A DNA stretch of 64,000 nt from an uncultured archaeon. Its GTDB lineage: Archaea > Thermoproteota > EX4484-205 > JAAOZP01. Both the position numbers and the translations under genes were made by a program. The notes below the pieces were generated by a model. That model was not told the DNA's origin. It worked only from the letters and a program-made list of their open reading frames with translations, and searched no databases. The first letter of the stretch is position 1, and every line of letters begins with the position of its first letter. The stretch spans positions 64,112 to 128,111 of the forward strand of contig CALIBN010000017.1 in NCBI GenBank assembly GCA_938045545.1, given 5' to 3'. Positions 6,654 through 63,643 of this stretch are shown piece after piece.

Positions 6654-7346
6654 TCATTTTTTAACTTCCCTGTTTCTTCTTACCTTAGCTAAGAACTCTC
6701 TTTTGAACTCTTTGTATTCTTCATTTTCATGCGACCTCTTATGCTCATCATATAATTTAAAGGCCGTGTAAACCGCTTCAACTCTTTTCAATACCTCATT
6801 AATCATCTGTTCTTCTGTCATACCCTTTGAGTCAAAGGACGACATGAAAAAGGAATCGTATCCAGGGTTTATATGGTATATCACTTCCACGGAAAACTTC
6901 TTGCCGATTTCTTAGCTATTTTGTCAGCCCATAATAGTCTTGTGAAAACACGTCCGTGGGGCTTCCTAATGTGCTTCTCGATATTCCTCCTATTTATAAA
7001 ATCGTCCAGTATCTCTTTCTCTTTTCTATCTATCTTAGCGAAGACCTCCTCTTTCTTCGTCTTGAACTCGCGTTGATGAAGCCTAACCAAAACCTCGCCG
7101 ACTTCATCCCCAGGAGCATCAAAGCATAGAGATTCTACTTGCACTCTTCCATCCTCATATTCATAGATGTATCTGCAACTAATGAATGCTCCAGTCCCTA
7201 TTTCCCACCTTCCCCGCGCCATTTTTTTTATTTTCGTCATAACACATTACATCTCTTGTTTCTATTTTAAATTGCTCAGTGTTTAGTTCATTCCTGAACC
7301 GCTCATTAAGATAGTTTTTCAACTTTTCTAGTAAGGCTTGACTCAC
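6654..7346 (-). pseudogene. Island 1 gene C: frameshifted hypothetical gene
   Basis: Three consecutive minus-strand reading frames look like one gene of about 230 residues. The first (GTG at 7346, ribosome site AGGAGG just upstream) runs to 7179 and starts SQALLEKLKNYLNERF. It passes into the second frame (about 7240-6881, RGRWEIGTGAFISCRYIYEYEDG) at a run of eight A/T bases near 7222-7229. The third frame (6890-6654, VEVIYHINPGYDSFF) overlaps the end of the second by ten bases and ends in a charged helix, EEYKEFKREFLAKVRR. No family is recognised. Alternatives are two or three separate overlapping small genes, or slippage at the A8 run producing one protein. A loose resemblance in layout to gene C of island 2 cannot be confirmed by eye. 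Confidence 0.45.
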
Positions 7347-7423
7347 TTCTTAATCTCCTCCTATAATCATAGCAACCAACTCGTCTACACTCTTTTCCAT
7401 TATGTCAGACCTCTTAAATATTA

Positions 7424-8750
7424 CTATGAATGGATTCTTGTAATTACCACGAACTCTGGGTAAACATCATCTAAGAGTAAGTGCACAGGGTCATAGGCAA
7501 GTGAAGCTGCAATTCCGGCGTAAGCATTCAGGTTTTCTCCAATATGATTCTTAAGATCAGCTATTGCCCTTTCCATTTGTTCCCTAAACTGGCCCACATT
7601 ATCTGCTAGCGTTGTACTCCCAACCTCCACAATTACGATTTTAGTTTCTTTAGGAATAGTTTTCCCTTCTATAACTATCTCCTTATTTGTAATCACATAG
7701 ATATCAGGAAATCCAGGTCTTCCATATCCTTCTCCGCTAGGCTCCAATCTCAAACTATCTGGGGAGATTTTATATGCTTCAGCAAACTTAGCAAGAATAC
7801 TGTCCTTATACTTCTCTCTAAGCGTAATTTCGCCAACCACCCCTATTTGCCATTTATGTGCTTCTGGGTCCTCTATTATGTTGCAGAGCATCATCTTTAC
7901 CTTTATCTTCGAAGACTCTTCTAAAGAAACTATGTGTACTGTTTTTAATGTTTTGGCTTCCTGGGATACATGGACTGCTAGCCTTTTGTTTCCGCAATAC
8001 TTAACGCCGTTGTCGTAATCAGCGATTATTACAAGCCTGTCTTCAGCGTCTACGCCCTCCCTCATTCTGCTTACCAATTCTTGGTAGGCATCATACCCGA
8101 GTTTTCTGAATAGCTTCTCCTTTAAATTAAGTTGCGTCTGATCTTTAATCTCCTCGTTAAGCTCTACTACCAGCTTGCCGCCATACAGTTGAAGAGGTTC
8201 CAGCTTAATGCTGTATTCTCCTACACTTGGTTTTGCTTCTCGAACGTATATGAACCTTATTACTCCGTCTTTATCAAGCTCGATGTCAGTTACAGGATAA
8301 CCTGTTTCTGAACTAGAGCTCCAGACTTTTATGACTTTATTCTCGTAGAGTACTAGTTTAAGTGTTTCGCCATCGATGTTCTTAGCCCTTATCTCCACCC
8401 TAGCACAAACTTTTCCATCCGCGCACCATTTCTTCTCAACTTTGGATTCAATTTCTTTCCCATCTATGCTTATTTTCATGTTTGCATAGTCAAAAATCAT
8501 CCTCTTACCTGCGACTGAGAATTCGTTTGGAAAAAGGTTTCAAAATCATACTCGTAAATCTCTAGACTGGCTATCTCTTTTTCAGCTACGCTGTCTACGC
8601 CTTCCAAGTATTTATGGGGTACATTGAGCCACAAAGATTCTTCCTCTACGCTGAATGCAAATTCTACTTCCTTTCCTCCCTCCAGCCTGAGCCTTGCTAT
8701 ATAGATTCCCTTACTTATCCTATCCTTAAGATTATTACACCGTTTTTAGT
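7424..8750 (-). pseudogene. Island 1 gene B: PD-(D/E)XK-like protein, frameshifted
   Basis: The main frame (8500-7424) gives 358 residues. The frame upstream, from about 8718 to 8504, gives KGIYIARLRLEGGKEVEFAF and matches the N-terminus of island 2 gene B (KRVYIARVYWQHG), so the gene is broken by a frameshift near 8500. Shared segments with the other copy: KLGYDAYQE/LLGYEAYG, DYDNGV/EYDNGK, and a C-terminal SLAYDP/ILGYNP. The C-terminal domain contains FPDIYV (near 7703), then 25 residues, then VEVGS (7619-7627). This matches a PD-(D/E)XK core in which the lysine is now glycine. Function unknown; a DNA-cleaving or DNA-binding ancestor is inferred. Confidence 0.5.
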
Positions 8751-8878
8751 TACGCTCCTTGAAATCAGTTCAGGTCTGAGATGCTTAAGACTATTTATCG
8801 CATTAAAGATTCCTTCCAATTCTTCGGGATTCCTTAGGACCTTATCGAGAAGAGGGCCGTCTAACTGGGGGAGGAAGT
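8715..8878 (-). pseudogene. Island 1 gene A remnant, C-terminal tail only
   Basis: A minus-strand frame reads LDGPLLDKVLRNPEELEGIF and continues to the stop at 8715. The segment NPEELEGIFNAINSLK matches SPEELESILKSLK at the end of gene A in island 2, and in both islands it lies directly before gene B. No start codon is visible; the 5' part is missing and abuts the divergent small gene at 8880. It is therefore a truncated remnant, or an N-terminal extension read in frame with gene B. Confidence 0.35.
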
Positions 8879-8879
8879 A

Positions 8880-9126
8880 ATGTTCAATGGGCCAGGTAAA
8901 AAGCTGGAGGAAATTGAGAATGCCGTGAGCTTCAGGGTCTACCCGCTAAACGTTGATCCGTTGAGGAGCTTGAGATGGTGAAGGAGGTTGCTGAGCGGCA
9001 CAGCATCAAAGCTAGAATGGGCTTCAGGGTAGCTTGGGTGTAAATGCAGGAACTCACAAGTATCTGACGCTCGGGCTTGAGGGAAGTAAGTTCAGGTTTG
9101 GCTACAAGCCCTATAGAGCAGCTTAG
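8880..9126 (+). pseudogene. Small frameshifted gene, about 80 residues
   Basis: It starts at ATG 8880 with a good ribosome site (GGAGGA 8 bases upstream) and reads MFNGPGKKLEEIENAVSFRV. One shift near 8962 moves to the frame VEELEMVKEVAERHSIKARM. A second shift near 9030 moves to NAGTHKYLTLGLEGSKFRFG and ends YKPYRAA-TAG. Each piece looks like good protein with no internal stop, so this is a recently broken gene (or one with two single-base errors). The family is not recognised; the final segment is reminiscent of archaeal repeated-family proteins, but I cannot confirm it. Bases 9127-9265 after it hold no gene I can support. Confidence 0.45.
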
Positions 9127-22373: not shown

Positions 22374-23111
22374 ATGTGGATACCTGCTTGGCTCGGAGAA
22401 GTGTATTCGAGGCTTTTCCTAAGGTTTGAGAGCGAGTTATTCACCTTTAAGGACGCCTTGGAGTTTCTAAAGGTTAGTGAAAACAGGCTTTCAGTAGCCT
22501 TCAGCAGGCTTCATAAAAATAGGGTTCTGCTCGTTTTCGACGATGGTCGGCCTAGGCGGTATCGGCTTATCGACCCTAGGGGCTTCATCCTCTTAGCATC
22601 AGGCACAGTTAAAAACCTGCATATGGTTCCTCAAGAAAGGTATGTTAAAGTTTTATGCGACGCCTTCCAGGTTCTTTCACGCTACTTAAGGCTGACTTCT
22701 CTAGCTGTGTATGGCTCTGTCGCCCGTGGGACGGCGAAGGAGAATAGCGACATAGACCTGCTTATTGTTTCTAACGATTTCTCTGGAAGCATTGGGAGGA
22801 GAATAGACGTGCTTTACCGGTTAGAGAAGAATCTGGAAGAATTGGCATGGCTCAGGAGGAATGGTGTCTACACTGGTTTCAGCTTCTATCCTCTGACTGA
22901 GGAGGAGGCTTCCCGGAAGCCTTTGCTCTTCATCGACATGACTGAGGATGCTGTAATAATTTACGATAGGAACCGGTTTCTGGAGAGAGTATTGACGGAG
23001 TTTAAAGCCGAGCTTCTCAAGCTCGGCGCTAAAAGGGTTTTCATGGACAAGGAAAACTGGTACTGGGATCTGAAGCCTGACTACAGGTTTGGGGAGGAGA
23101 TAGCTGTTTGA
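22374..23111 (+). CDS. MNT nucleotidyltransferase with N-terminal winged helix
   Basis: A 245-residue protein. Residues 1-75 look like a winged-helix DNA-binding domain (FTFKDALEFLKVSENRLSVA and a basic RPRRYRLIDPRG wing). From about residue 115 comes the minimal nucleotidyltransferase motif YGSVARGTAKENSDIDLLIV, i.e. GS-x9-DxD, with both metal aspartates intact. The TTG of the HEPN gene overlaps its TGA. In known HEPN/MNT systems the MNT protein is the antitoxin and AMPylates the HEPN toxin. Here the extra DNA-binding domain suggests it also represses its own promoter through the palindrome just upstream. Confidence 0.85.
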   Translation: MWIPAWLGEVYSRLFLRFESELFTFKDALEFLKVSENRLSVAFSRLHKNRVLLVFDDGRPRRYRLIDPRGFILLASGTVKNLHMVPQERYVKVLCDAFQVLSRYLRLTSLAVYGSVARGTAKENSDIDLLIVSNDFSGSIGRRIDVLYRLEKNLEELAWLRRNGVYTGFSFYPLTEEEASRKPLLFIDMTEDAVIIYDRNRFLERVLTEFKAELLKLGAKRVFMDKENWYWDLKPDYRFGEEIAV

Positions 23112-23533
23112 GGCTCGTCAAGATCGCCCGATCATACTTGAAACAGGCTGAGGCTAGGCTTAGTGATGCTAAGGACGCATGTCAAGAGGATAACTATCCT
23201 TATGCTGTGAGGCTGAGCCAAGAGTGCGTTGAACTTTCTTTGAAAGCTGTGCTTAAGGCAGTTGGCATAGAGTACCCGAAGGTGCACGATGTTTCAGATG
23301 TATTGTTGAGTGTTGGACAGAGGTTTCCAGAATGGTTTCAACAGGAGTTGACCTATCTTTCTGAATCCTCTAAGATTCTGGTTAAGAAGAGGGAGGTAAG
23401 CTTCTATGGAGGTGAGGAAGCTTTTCTGTCTCCGGATGAAGTAATAGGGGAGGAGGATGCTAGGGATGCTATCGAAAGAGCTGGGAAGGCTTTCACCATT
23501 TGTAGAAAACTGGTGGAGGAGCTCGAAGACTAG
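23108..23533 (+). CDS. HEPN-domain protein, probable toxin of MNT/HEPN pair
   Basis: A 141-residue all-helical HEPN protein: ARSYLKQAEARLSDAKDACQ, then YAVRLSQECVELSLKAVLKA, the standard helix pair of HEPN partners of nucleotidyltransferases. Family toxins cut RNA using an R-x4-6-H motif. I do not see a clear copy of it; the nearest arginines are in KKREVSF, so RNase activity is uncertain. The start is TTG at 23108, overlapping the stop of the MNT gene by four bases, so the two are translationally coupled. Stop TAG. Confidence 0.82.
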   Translation: MRLVKIARSYLKQAEARLSDAKDACQEDNYPYAVRLSQECVELSLKAVLKAVGIEYPKVHDVSDVLLSVGQRFPEWFQQELTYLSESSKILVKKREVSFYGGEEAFLSPDEVIGEEDARDAIERAGKAFTICRKLVEELED

Positions 23534-59970: not shown

Positions 59971-59993
59971 CTTCCGTTGGTAAATTGCGCGCG

Positions 59994-61326
59994 CGCAGGA
60001 GCCCGCAGTTGGAGACGTTGTCCTCGAGCTCGTTAAAGATGGCAGGGTCGTCGCAGGGGTGAGGGTTTCACTCGTGCTTAAGGCGACGATGTTCTGGAAG
60101 GGCTTCTGGGATGGTCTGGCAACGAAGCTCCCCGGAATATAGATCACCGCTGGCGTAATGATCGCCATGGGCTTCTTGATTCCCCACGCCTACATTAGAC
60201 CAGCGTACTATCTCCTTTTGGGCCTAGGAGTGCTATCGAACATACTTGAAGTAACTTCGGACATCGCAGAAGCCAATAGGGCCAAGCCGAGATGCTTGCC
60301 TTAGCTGAGGCCTTCGAGAACCGTTCGAAGGAATTTACAGCTAGAGGCGAGGCTGAACATGCTGCCGAAAGCGTGGGCTTTGCGCTCACGTTAAGGAGAG
60401 AGGTTAACGAGACGATGAACAATCTATTGCTGAACGTTATCTCAGACCTCACCATAGCGATAAGCTTTGATGAGATAAGGATAGCCCTTGGATTGAAGGA
60501 GCCCCTAGCCAGAGACGAGTTTGAGAGACAATATAAGATAGGTTATGCTAGGGGGAGGGTTACTGGCACAGTCATTTCGTGCATGCTTTACGTAACCCTG
60601 CTGGTAATGGTTAATAGGATAAAGGTTGAGAGGATTGGTCAACGCTTAACAGCTGGCCAAGTCCTCAAGCTGATGGCGAGGGGATTTACAATTGGATAAC
60701 TCCAGCGGTATGGGACGCCGCCGTCCTGATGTGGGGAAAGATAAAGGGCTTCACTAGCAACGTCATTGACCTGCTCTTAGGGAATAAGTATAGCAGGAGG
60801 TTTGGGGAAGCGGTTGGAAGCCTGCTCCAGAACGCGAGGGGAGAGCTGCCTAAGATTAAGGATACGCTGGACATTTCCTCAGGAATCTCGAAAAATGTCT
60901 TAGAGAACGTTCCGAGCAGGGAGAGCTCAAAGAAGATACTCGACGCCATAGGGGGGCATTGTTGAACGGTATTCCCTGGAGGAGCTGAAGGAGAAAGGTG
61001 GAACGATGGCGAGAAGCATAGTATCGATGTGGATCAAAGATGGTGACGAGACGATAGACAATCTGAACGATTGGTTAAACGGAAATCCCGATAAGATAAG
61101 GGCATTTATAGACGAGATACTGTTAGCAATAAAGGGGGATGCCACAAAAGATGTCGGATTAAAGATAGGGGACATCGCCGCCAATTACTTCGATATTAAG
61201 AGCAAATATAGCGAAGAGGCTGCAAAAGCTTTCCTCAATCTCATCTTGAAAAGTCCTGAAGAGCTGGAGAGCATATTGAAATCTCTTAAATGCAAAATCT
61301 TCACGAAGACACATGTGTCACATTAA
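59994..61326 (+). pseudogene. Island 2 gene A: broken helical/membrane protein
   Basis: About 440 codons spread over frames. PAVGDVVLELVKDGRVVAGV (a strand-rich domain) runs to an in-frame TAG at 60140, then membrane segments (MIAMGFLIPHAYIRP, AYYLLLGLGVLSNILEV). A shift near 60287 leads to MLALAEAFENRSKEFTARGE with another membrane helix (SCMLYVTLLVMVNRI). Shifts near 60693 and in a G6 run at 60951-60956 lead to helices VWDAAVLMWGKIKG, ETIDNLNDWLNGNPDKIRAF and SPEELESILKSLK. No start codon is in frame after the promoter. The C-terminal end matches the remnant in island 1. Family unknown. The first part may be a separate gene. Confidence 0.5.
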
Positions 61327-61343
61327 AGAGGGAGGAAGCATAT

Positions 61344-62840
61344 ATGATAGTATTAGGCGAAAGATTCGAGAAAAGAGTCTACATCGCAAGAGTTTACTGG
61401 CAGCACGGAGATAAGAGCAGCATCATAGAGTTTCCAATTTCGACTAGGGGCTCAAACGTGATTGCCATACCGGCAGATAAGGCCGATGAGATCCTAGACG
61501 CGATAGGCAGCAATGAGGCAAGGGTGGAGATGACCAAGATCGTCATGATGGATTATAGGCTCTCCTTCGTATCAAGCTTTTGGAACGGCCAGATAGAGCT
61601 AGACCTCTTCAATAACGAGATAATGCTGGGCAGAGAGCGATACAAGTGCTCAGTAGAAGCTGGTCACGGCAAAGAAGGGATCTTTGTCGAAGTAACCGTG
61701 GGGTCTAGAAATACGCAAGGGAAATCCCTTGTCCTGGTCTTCCACAGTAATGGCAAAGTAGCTGTGTTACACGCCGGGCATAAGTTTCCTCTTGAAAGCA
61801 TTGAGATAGATGCTGAGCACAACGCGGTGAAGGTGACTTATGAAATGGAGGGACAGAAACAGGAGTGCGTATACAGCCTTTGGTCTGGAATTGAGGAGGT
61901 AGTAGTAGACGGAAAGAAGATCAGAAAGCTGGTTAACATAGATAAACGGCTCCAGTGGGAGGAGAAGGTAGGGGAGAGGACAGCTATTGGCCTGAAACAG
62001 AACCTCCTCATATTATTAGGTTATGAAGCCTATGGGATCGTGAAGGAGGAGATAGGAAAGAATTATTTCATCGTCGTGGAGTATGATAACGGCAAGATAG
62101 CGAGTACCAAAGATGAAAGCATTGCCATCAAAGTGCCTGAGGGCGCTAAAGAGACGAAAGCGATATACGTATTCTCACTAGAGATATCTCCAGTAGAAGG
62201 ACATCCAACTTTACCAGAGGTAATAAAGAAGAAAGTAATAAATGCTCTCAGGAGGGTGATAAAGCATCTCGCTGAAGGAAGCCTAAGAGCAGCAGCCGTT
62301 CCACTATGGACCGCCGGAGAGTATGCTGTACATGTGAAGAGTAGTGACAGCATTCTCAATAAGCTCGGGAAAGCGCTGAATATCCCGGAGAATGAGCTCG
62401 AGGCATTCAAGAACGCAGTGAATGTCGAATAGCATGGAGAGCTTAATCCAGATAAGGGAAGCGCCGATATAATAATTAAGGCTAAGAGGGATATAACTAT
62501 AAAGGGAAGGATATTCAAATCCAATGATGTTATCGCGATAGTTGGGGTTAAAAGCACTGTTCGAATAGGTGTAGATGCATTTCCAAATGCATTCAAAGAA
62601 ATGTATGATGATGCTGTAAAAGGTCTCAGGGATCACATTAAGAACTATGGAACCGCAACGTATGGTGTTATAGTTATCCTCGGCTACAATCCCGAGATGA
62701 TGCTTTGGAGTATGCATATGAAGGATGAGCCGTTCTTCCCCGTCGAGATTCTTACTAAAGAAGGGATCTATGAGAATCCTTACATAGAGGTACTTCCAAG
62801 GGAGAAAATACTACCTCCTCAAGTAGGTCAAGGAAGCTGA
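61344..62840 (+). pseudogene. Island 2 gene B: PD-(D/E)XK-like protein with in-frame TAG
   Basis: ATG 61344 follows a GGGAGG ribosome site (61331-61336). The frame runs 362 codons to TAG 62430-62432 and then continues in the same frame for 136 codons to 62840. The part after the TAG matches the C-terminal third of island 1 gene B, so the TAG interrupts one gene. Segments: KRVYIARVYWQHG (N-terminus), LLGYEAYGIVKEE, VEYDNGK, then after the TAG SADIIIKAK, a D-x25-G-V-K core (62466 and 62544-62552) and GVIVILGYNPEMM. The acidic residue expected two before the lysine is Gly. The homologous core in island 1 has EVG. Nuclease function is inferred, and probably lost. Confidence 0.55.
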
Positions 62841-63643
62841 GGAGACGAGTAGGCTTAAAAGGCTCGAATCCGCAATTGTTAATGGAAATGATAGACCCTG
62901 GGCTCGAGAGGCGCTTCGTGAGCTCGATAGAGTACCTTCGCAGGATGAATTTCTTTAAAGAGTACTTCGACTTGACCTCCGAGGAGATATTCGAAAAGAT
63001 CTTGAATGGTGAAATAGATTATGAGACCAAATGGTTTGCAGAGAAATAGTCTGAGGGGGAACGGAAGTGGGAGAGGGAGTTACTGAAAAAGACGCTGGGA
63101 GCAGGAGCCCACGGACAATTTTTGAAGGAATCGCTTGAGAGTGGCACAGAATATTGGATGAAGGTCAGTGGGTATGAGGTAGACGTTGAAGTGGCGCGCT
63201 TTGATATCCATAGGGTCTTCCTCGAAGATCCGGAGACCGTCATAAGGGACGGAATATGTGAAGCAATAGTGGAGAAGCTTGCAAGAGTCTCAAGGGGCTT
63301 TTTCAGCCCGACGGATGTTAAGGGAGAAATGCTGGACTGGATGGGTGAGCCGCCGCCGGAGCTAAAGGAGGAGTTAAAGGGATGCATCTCCCCACAGGGG
63401 TGTATCTTCAAGGTGGACTTCAAGTTTAGGGGAAAGGAATATGCAGCGGAGTTTTACAGCAATGCGGATTACCTCCGCATGGACTCATTCGTGAGGAAGA
63501 TAAACGATCTCATAAAGGATACCGGATATCAATACTATTGGCCTCGCTATTTACATATAGAGTACTTAGTCTACATGGTATTTTCGGAGGATGAAGCGAG
63601 GAAATTGGAGAAAGAAAGAGGCTGGAAGCTCTCTTTGCACTAG
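62827..63643 (+). pseudogene. Island 2 gene C: broken hypothetical gene
   Basis: The frame from 62827 reads VKEAEETSRLKRLESAIVNG and RPWAREALRELDRVPSQDEF. A shift near 62955 leads to FKEYFDLTSEEIFEKILNGE and an in-frame TAG at 63047. The same frame then continues SEGERKWERELLKKTLGAGA and to 63643 (VDVEVARFDIHRVFLEDPET, YQYYWPRYLHIEYLVYMVFS). The intact part from 63122 is 173 residues. The full product would be about 270. No family recognised. Gene order A-B-C parallels island 1, but I cannot show that the two C genes are related. Confidence 0.45.

What the first reader, a model, noticed from the sequence alone, without database searches (positions are those of the whole stretch)
6654..9126. 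Island 1 carries a two-gene module that recurs 53 kb away in island 2
Minus-strand genes A (tail only) and B at 8878-7424 match plus-strand genes A and B at 59994-62840 in the same order. Matching segments by eye: NPEELEGIFNAINSLK with SPEELESILKSLK, KGIYIARLRL with KRVYIARVYW, KLGYDAYQE with LLGYEAYG, DYDNGV with EYDNGK, SLAYDP with ILGYNP. Identity is low, so the copies are old relatives rather than a fresh duplication. A third, unrelated-looking gene C follows in both. A recurring A-B pair with a nuclease-like domain, repeatedly found in decaying form, is what one expects of a mobile or defence-type module not yet described.
Basis: partly seen in the sequence, partly recalled or inferred. 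Interest (0 to 1): 0.78.

Follow-up and report, generated by a model that had tools for sequence, protein, structure and literature searches.

The report
Decayed archaeal toxin-immunity cassettes (Brockarchaeota)
Two wrecked genes 53 kb apart are remnants of a large, so far undescribed family of giant, probably surface-exposed proteins in hot-spring archaea that carry swappable nuclease tips next to protective genes, the hallmark of weapons microbes use against their close relatives.

Summary
The two B regions are homologous (E=5e-14) and lie with A-like sequence in the same order. But A and B are not two genes: in relatives they are the centre and C-terminus of one giant protein (1550-2450 aa), and both window copies are pseudogenes.

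Across the genus (the genus of several Candidatus Brockarchaeota MAGs) I found about 43 such giants, full or partial, in three delivery types. Alpha has a signal peptide and Ig-like ectodomain, beta six N-terminal membrane helices, gamma a Glu-rich N-terminus without a signal. Delivery parts are well conserved; identity then collapses into swappable C-terminal cassettes ending in PD-(D/E)XK-like nucleases. A small gene (families F0, F1, F2, F3) follows directly in 32 of 37 cases; F1 is always convergent. Orphan cassettes, orphan F genes and cassettes shared between unrelated delivery types occur. Intact genes are under purifying selection.

Best explanation: an archaeal polymorphic toxin-immunity system, with 'C' as immunity. 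Toxicity, neutralisation and delivery are inferred, not shown. None of the parts reached a curated family cut-off. One other archaeal family has relatives.

The parts
8683..8861 (-). Island 1: remnant of the helical region and first beta domain of a giant toxin-like protein ('A tail' plus KGIYIARLRL), split over two frames
   Evidence: Motif positions; homologous stretch in intact giants; frames read
7424..8539 (-). Island 1: B1 = C-terminal cassette (beta domain plus PD-(D/E)XK-like domain) of a giant; catalytic ExK reads EVG (7633-7613), so probably inactive
   Evidence: tblastn of L040 giant residues 1207-1546, E=6.7e-35; profile A12 E=5e-110; alignment A9
6654..7346 (-). Island 1: gene C = F0-type immunity-like gene, broken into three frames (7346-7179, 7240-6881, 6890-6654)
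   Evidence: F0 profile E=1.3e-9, 1.8e-20 and 2.1e-21 for the three pieces, in order; tblastn of L046 F0 protein E=4e-22
59984..61314 (+). Island 2: 'A' = decayed central part of an alpha giant (FWKGFWDG next to the membrane segment 60092-60115, YNWITPAVWD 60687-60716, helical region), with several frame changes
   Evidence: Pieces 59996-60298, 60289-60684, 60675-60953 and 60952-61293 at 55-75% identity to L126 giant; profile A3 hits
61305..62840 (+). Island 2: B2 = C-terminal cassette of the same giant, one in-frame TAG at 62430-62432; catalytic ExK reads GVK (62529-62558)
   Evidence: 41% identity to L043 giant residues 1209-1686; translation; profile A12
62876..63643 (+). Island 2: gene C = F1-type immunity-like gene with one in-frame TAG; co-directional here, although all intact F1 genes found next to a toxin are convergent
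   Evidence: 53% identity to L050 F1 over 62903-63637, E=2.9e-69; translation; profile A6

Best explanation
The two islands are dead remains of an archaeal polymorphic toxin-immunity system. In its intact form it is a two- or three-gene locus. (1) In alpha and beta loci, a partner protein with an N-terminal hydrophobic (signal-like) segment and, in most alpha loci, a C-terminal membrane helix. (2) A giant protein. Its N-terminal part takes it to the cell surface: a signal peptide plus Ig-like ectodomain and mid-protein membrane helices (alpha), or six N-terminal membrane helices plus a large further part (beta). A third, gamma type has a Glu-rich N-terminus and must use another route. Its C-terminal cassette is a beta-rich carrier domain followed by a PD-(D/E)XK-like nuclease. 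(3) A small soluble protein (F0, F1, F2 or F3) encoded right after it. Proposed action (inferred): the cassette is delivered into a neighbouring, usually closely related archaeon and cuts its nucleic acid; siblings survive because the F protein binds and blocks the cognate nuclease. New specificities arise by swapping cassette plus immunity gene under a conserved delivery part; old toxins decay while immunity genes are sometimes kept. Shown here: homology, architecture, the sharp conserved/variable boundary, cassette exchange between unrelated delivery types, adjacency of F genes, orphan cassettes and orphan immunity genes, and purifying selection. Inferred: surface location, nuclease activity, toxicity, neutralisation and delivery.
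For: About 43 giants, full or partial, linked by homology in the genus. Alpha pairs are mostly 65-88% identical over about 800-1000 aa, then fall to 5-25% (one pair declines gradually); beta pairs reach 93%, then 5-22% before or at the tip. C-terminal 170 aa fall into at least four nuclease groups, most showing the D...[ED]xK pattern. The same cassette sits on unrelated delivery parts: gamma L054 358-720 vs beta L050, 51%; gamma L042 vs beta-type L058, 49%; nothing else aligns. The first downstream gene belongs to F0, F1 or F2 in 30 of 37 giants, usually overlapping or within a few bases; F1 is convergent in 11 of 11, F0 and F2 are co-directional, and F2 goes with all 7 'ECKHG' nucleases and with none of the B-type. 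Immunity family follows the nuclease tree (3 changes vs 6.2 in shuffles, 5 of 500 as low); delivery type needs 5 changes. Orphan second cassette plus F0 (L061), an F0-F0 tandem fusion (L051), F1 genes without an adjacent toxin (L202, L203), and an orphan F1 beside pyrG in another archaeal family (L200). Immunity proteins lack membrane segments, 0 of 30. dN/dS 0.10-0.30 by NG86. Pfam PDDEXK_1 3e-5 and PDDEXK_4 1.7e-4 in single members. AlphaFold2 pLDDT 88.8 with helix, three strands, helix, strand order in the tip. Foldseek nearest nucleases BstEII (prob 0.87) and Hjc (0.82).
Against: No experiment shows toxicity or neutralisation. No nuclease was shown to reach a curated Pfam cut-off, and no Foldseek hit is at E<=1e-3 for the whole cassette. 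No known translocation apparatus or processing protease was recognised; the gamma type has no signal peptide. Pairing is not strict: nuclease group 2 occurs with F1, F2 and F3, and for L052, L124 and L133 no recognised immunity family follows. The window copies themselves are dead.
Confidence: 0.82

Rival explanations
1. Surface-anchored innate antiviral defence: the ectodomain senses a virus at the envelope and the C-terminal nuclease destroys incoming DNA; the F protein is a brake that prevents self-damage.
For: Nuclease tip, membrane segments, an ectodomain with beta domains resembling alpha-2-macroglobulin and complement folds, many copies per genome.
Against: Diversity lies at the nuclease/F end, not at the sensor end, the opposite of what target sensing predicts. 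F genes without toxins make no sense as brakes. No PADLOC model matches.
Confidence: 0.08
2. Mobile genetic element: B is a homing-type or transposon-associated nuclease that spreads the module between sites.
For: Many decayed copies; the hdrA-tldE site is empty in G004 and variably occupied in others; a PD-(D/E)XK-like domain.
Against: The nuclease is the C-terminal tip of giants with export signals. No recombinase or terminal repeats were noticed at the loci examined (not searched systematically). No F1 relative in viral contigs. Cassettes swap while delivery parts stay.
Confidence: 0.04
3. A self/nonself recognition or adhesion system like the VARTIG modules of Thermococcales, in which the nuclease-like fold has lost catalysis and serves as a binding module.
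For: Similar layout: large Ig-like secreted protein followed by small genes, PTS-like shuffling (PMC8416519). Some members have degenerate catalytic motifs.
Against: VARTIG has no recognisable toxin domain and its following genes mostly encode membrane proteins (PMC8416519). Here nearly all intact tips keep the acidic D and most keep ExK, and the F proteins are soluble.
Confidence: 0.06

Closest known systems
Polymorphic toxin systems (Zhang et al. 2012, PMC3482391), especially Tox-REase toxins
   Same: Conserved trafficking part, variable C-terminal toxin of restriction-endonuclease type (GxxxE, D, ExK), adjacent immunity gene, orphan cassettes, polyimmunity loci
   Different: No match to any Tox-REase or Imm Pfam model was found; delivery proteins are new; no RHS, FilH or HINT parts reported by Pfam in the proteins scanned; one immunity family is always convergent to its toxin
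Archaeal polymorphic toxins (Makarova et al. 2019, mBio e00715-19, not held here; related summary in PMC6393860)
   Same: Archaeal loci with PD-(D/E)XK domains predicted as polymorphic toxin systems
   Different: Markers named in PMC6393860 (DUF4157 protease, colicin D) were not found; lineage and protein families are different; the primary paper could not be read, so overlap with its tables is unchecked
VARTIG modules of Thermococcales (PMC8416519)
   Same: Large Ig-domain secreted protein, hypervariable, followed by variable small genes; PTS-like organisation
   Different: VARTIG lacks identified toxins; here the variable part is a nuclease-like tip and the Ig-like part is the conserved one
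Contact-dependent growth inhibition (CdiA/CdiI)
   Same: Giant protein with exchangeable C-terminal nuclease, small immunity gene, orphan toxin/immunity cassettes (from general knowledge of CDI)
   Different: No TPS/FHA repeats or CdiB recognised by Pfam; archaeal cell envelope; partner protein of another kind

Membership tests
Polymorphic toxin system | Conserved N-terminal trafficking region joined to divergent, exchangeable C-terminal toxin domains | tested here: met
   Windowed identity; nuclease groups; cassette shared across delivery types
Polymorphic toxin system | Small immunity gene immediately downstream, co-varying with the toxin | tested here: met
   30 of 37 with F0/F1/F2 directly following, plus L051 (F0-F0) and L132 (F3); F2 only with the ECKHG group apart from L121; F0/F1 clustered on the nuclease tree
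Polymorphic toxin system | Orphan toxin cassettes and orphan or multiplied immunity genes | tested here: met
   L061 second cassette, L051 F0-F0 fusion, F1 without adjacent toxin in L202, L203 and L200
Polymorphic toxin system | Secretion signal or export route | tested here: inconclusive
   Hydropathy shows an N-terminal hydrophobic segment in most alpha giants and six membrane segments in beta; gamma has none. No dedicated signal-peptide predictor and no secretion experiment
Polymorphic toxin system | C-terminal domain is toxic and neutralised by its neighbour | not testable with these tools
   Needs expression assays
PD-(D/E)XK (restriction-endonuclease-like) superfamily | Core fold and D...[DE]xK motif | tested here: inconclusive
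   Motif conserved in A4 and A5; single members hit PDDEXK_1 at 3e-5, and the one member whose scores were shown was below the cut-offs; model has the expected topology; Foldseek BstEII and Hjc but none at E<=1e-3
DUF4157-marked archaeal polymorphic toxins | DUF4157 zinc protease marker (as stated in PMC6393860) | tested here: not met
   No such Pfam match in the giants scanned; not filed under this subset
VARTIG | Homology to the arCOG07710 Ig protein, found in Thermococcales | not tested

The most novel reading that the evidence does not exclude
An undescribed archaeal polymorphic toxin system with three unrelated delivery architectures (including one without any secretion signal) sharing one pool of interchangeable nuclease-immunity cassettes, in which one immunity family is always transcribed towards its toxin; it would amount to a lineage-specific arms race between closely related hot-spring archaea.
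Probability: 0.65. Interest if true: 0.75.

Novelty: new variant of a known kind. Interest (0 to 1): 0.64.

Why it matters
Weapons that archaea use against one another are barely known, and archaeal cell-to-cell protein delivery almost not at all. This family has many loci, at least four immunity families and clear toxin-immunity pairs, so toxicity and neutralisation can be tested directly in laboratory E. coli. It also explains part of the unannotated genome of Brockarchaeota and offers a natural series of swapped cassettes for studying how such systems diversify. I found no description of it in the papers that could be searched; the main survey of archaeal polymorphic toxins (mBio 2019) was not held.

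Tried and rejected
Pyrrolysine or stop-codon reassignment as the reason for the in-frame TAGs: rejected, because TAG is a common stop and no PylS passes its cut-off. Known defence system: no PADLOC match of note for the B and C proteins scanned (one KwaA hit at 0.022 judged chance). Known toxin or immunity families: nothing at a curated cut-off in the Pfam and NCBIfam scans of giants and F proteins; a PQQ-type beta-propeller gene next to L052 is well matched but is not an obvious immunity candidate. PDB sequence search gave only weak nuclease hits, best NucS 0.02 and Card1 0.18. Virus origin: no F1 relative in IMG/VR; the B profile was too diverse for that search. The gamma-type upstream gene as a general partner: three loci have a Metallophos_2 gene, but the own-genome locus L056 has an Nnr-type housekeeping gene there, so it is not required. 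A tandem run of 229-242 aa frames in L053 was first read as an F0 array; only one member was confirmed as F0, so it is not used as evidence.

Full report
1. The observation. Three more loci came up in that first search, and later searches raised the number in this genome to more than ten.

2. A and B are one gene. In the same genus the homologous region is the end of very long open frames, up to 2445 aa. tblastn of these giants against the window lays island 2 out as one gene broken into successive frames (59984-60298, 60280-60687, 60675-60953, 60952-61314, 61305-62813). Island 1 keeps only the C-terminal end. Both copies have lost the catalytic ExK in different ways (EVG in B1, GVK in B2). 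TAG is an ordinary stop in this genome, so the stops are real damage.

3. Lineage. A scan of named genomes with the ectodomain alignment returned 25 loci. In 398 genomes of the phylum the B profile is confined to the genus apart from three weak hits between 1e-5 and 1e-4. The F1 family recurs once outside (G085, E=3e-40) and the ectodomain once strongly (G193, E=2e-38), both in genus g54 of another family; weaker ectodomain hits elsewhere fall in one Ig-like stretch. G193 has giants ending in a 'VKYW'-type tip followed by a small gene homologous to the one beside L132.

4. Anatomy of intact loci. Alpha loci: partner D (about 380-450 aa, N-terminal hydrophobic segment and usually a C-terminal membrane helix), giant (1550-1830 aa, N-terminal hydrophobic segment, beta-rich ectodomain, 1-3 membrane segments mid-protein, helical region, C-terminal cassette), then F. 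Beta loci: D (489-546 aa), giant with about six N-terminal membrane segments (2340-2450 aa), then F. Gamma loci: 720-850 aa, Glu-rich N-terminus without a membrane segment. A model of the alpha ectodomain has moderate confidence (pLDDT 70). Its best fold matches are Ig-like, fibronectin-type and alpha-2-macroglobulin/complement-type beta domains (E about 1e-7), so only 'tandem beta-sandwich domains' should be read from it.

5. Polymorphism. Identity along alpha pairs is mostly 65-88% for about 800-1000 residues, then 5-25%; the closest pair, L040/L045, declines more gradually. In beta pairs it is up to 93%, then 5-22%. L133 and L036 align over residues 1-2021, then only over the last 90. Gamma L054 aligns with beta L050 only over the cassette (51%), and gamma L042 with the beta-type L058 only over the cassette (49%). 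On the nuclease tree delivery type needs 5 changes and immunity family 3. So cassettes, together with their F gene, move between delivery parts.

6. The tip. Alignments A4 and A5 keep a conserved D and [ED]xK, preceded in many group-0 members by GxxxE or a variant of it. Single members reach PDDEXK_1 3e-5, PDDEXK_4 1.7e-4 and NERD 1e-3 in Pfam. The AlphaFold2 model of the L137 cassette (pLDDT 88.8) has a helix with GxxxE, three strands carrying D and ExK, a helix and a strand. Foldseek with the whole cassette is dominated by the beta carrier domain, but the nucleases BstEII (prob 0.87), Hjc (0.82) and FokI appear; none is at E<=1e-3. I take the PD-(D/E)XK assignment as likely, not proven.

7. 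The F genes. Thirty of 37 giants are followed directly by F0 (co-directional), F1 (convergent, 11 of 11) or F2 (co-directional). L051 carries an F0-F0 fusion and L132 an F3 gene. F2 goes with all seven 'ECKHG' tips and no B-type tip; one group-2 tip (L121) also has F2. F proteins show no membrane segment (0 of 30). F1 genes occur away from any recognised toxin (L202, L203; L200 beside pyrG), and L061 has a second, free-standing cassette plus F0. In the own genome several damaged toxins stand next to an undamaged F gene (L059 twice, L201); no case of the reverse was seen among the loci listed, but the sample is small.

8. Selection. dN/dS between intact relatives is 0.10-0.30 by NG86 for ectodomain, tip and F genes; YN00 gives 0.16-0.58, with dS near saturation in some pairs. 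These are maintained genes, not random open frames.

9. The site. hdrA and tldE flank island 1. In G004 the same neighbours are about 500 bp apart with nothing recognisable between; in the sister G003 F0 remnants lie there; in G005 other genes do. Behind thiI (island 2) a giant remnant is also present in G003 and none was seen in G004, G005, G002 or G007. So these are gain/loss sites of the system.

10. Interpretation. The features match polymorphic toxin systems as described in PMC3482391: exchangeable C-terminal toxins, adjacent immunity, orphan cassettes, multiplied immunity genes. The alternatives (envelope-based antiviral defence, mobile element, VARTIG-like recognition) each fail on the place where variation sits, on the orphan F genes, or on the retained catalytic residues. 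What is not shown is function: no toxicity, neutralisation or delivery data exist, and how such a protein crosses from one archaeon into another is unknown. The window contains only broken members; interest comes from the family they lead to.

Noticed in passing
window 62876-63643: The F1-type gene of island 2 is co-directional with B2, while all 11 intact F1 genes next to a giant are convergent, and B2's nearest relative (L043) pairs with F0; island 2 may be a mosaic of two modules.
   Followed up: partly
L042, L048, L054 (upstream gene): Gamma-type toxins without a signal peptide follow a gene with a calcineurin-like phosphoesterase domain (Metallophos_2, E about 1e-5) and a Cys-rich N-terminus; remnants of it also lie beside decayed gamma copies (L057, L060, L201).
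   Followed up: partly
L231:6292-10046: In G005 the hdrA-tldE spacer holds about 3.7 kb with two genes that resemble window genes 22374-23111 and 23108-23533 (34% identity): another occupant of the same variable site.
   Followed up: no
L052:522-1796 and L132:4033-5097: Two giants with related tips (nuclease group 2) have a nearby PQQ-type beta-propeller gene (54-59% identical between loci); its role is unclear.
   Followed up: no
L133:9939-11360 and L124:2491-3906: The first sizeable gene after two giants encodes a 471-473 aa protein unrelated to F0-F3; possibly further immunity families.
   Followed up: no
L053:3136-6003: A run of similar-sized frames (229-242 aa) follows a truncated B-type toxin and one F0 gene; whether they are further immunity genes was not tested.
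   Followed up: no
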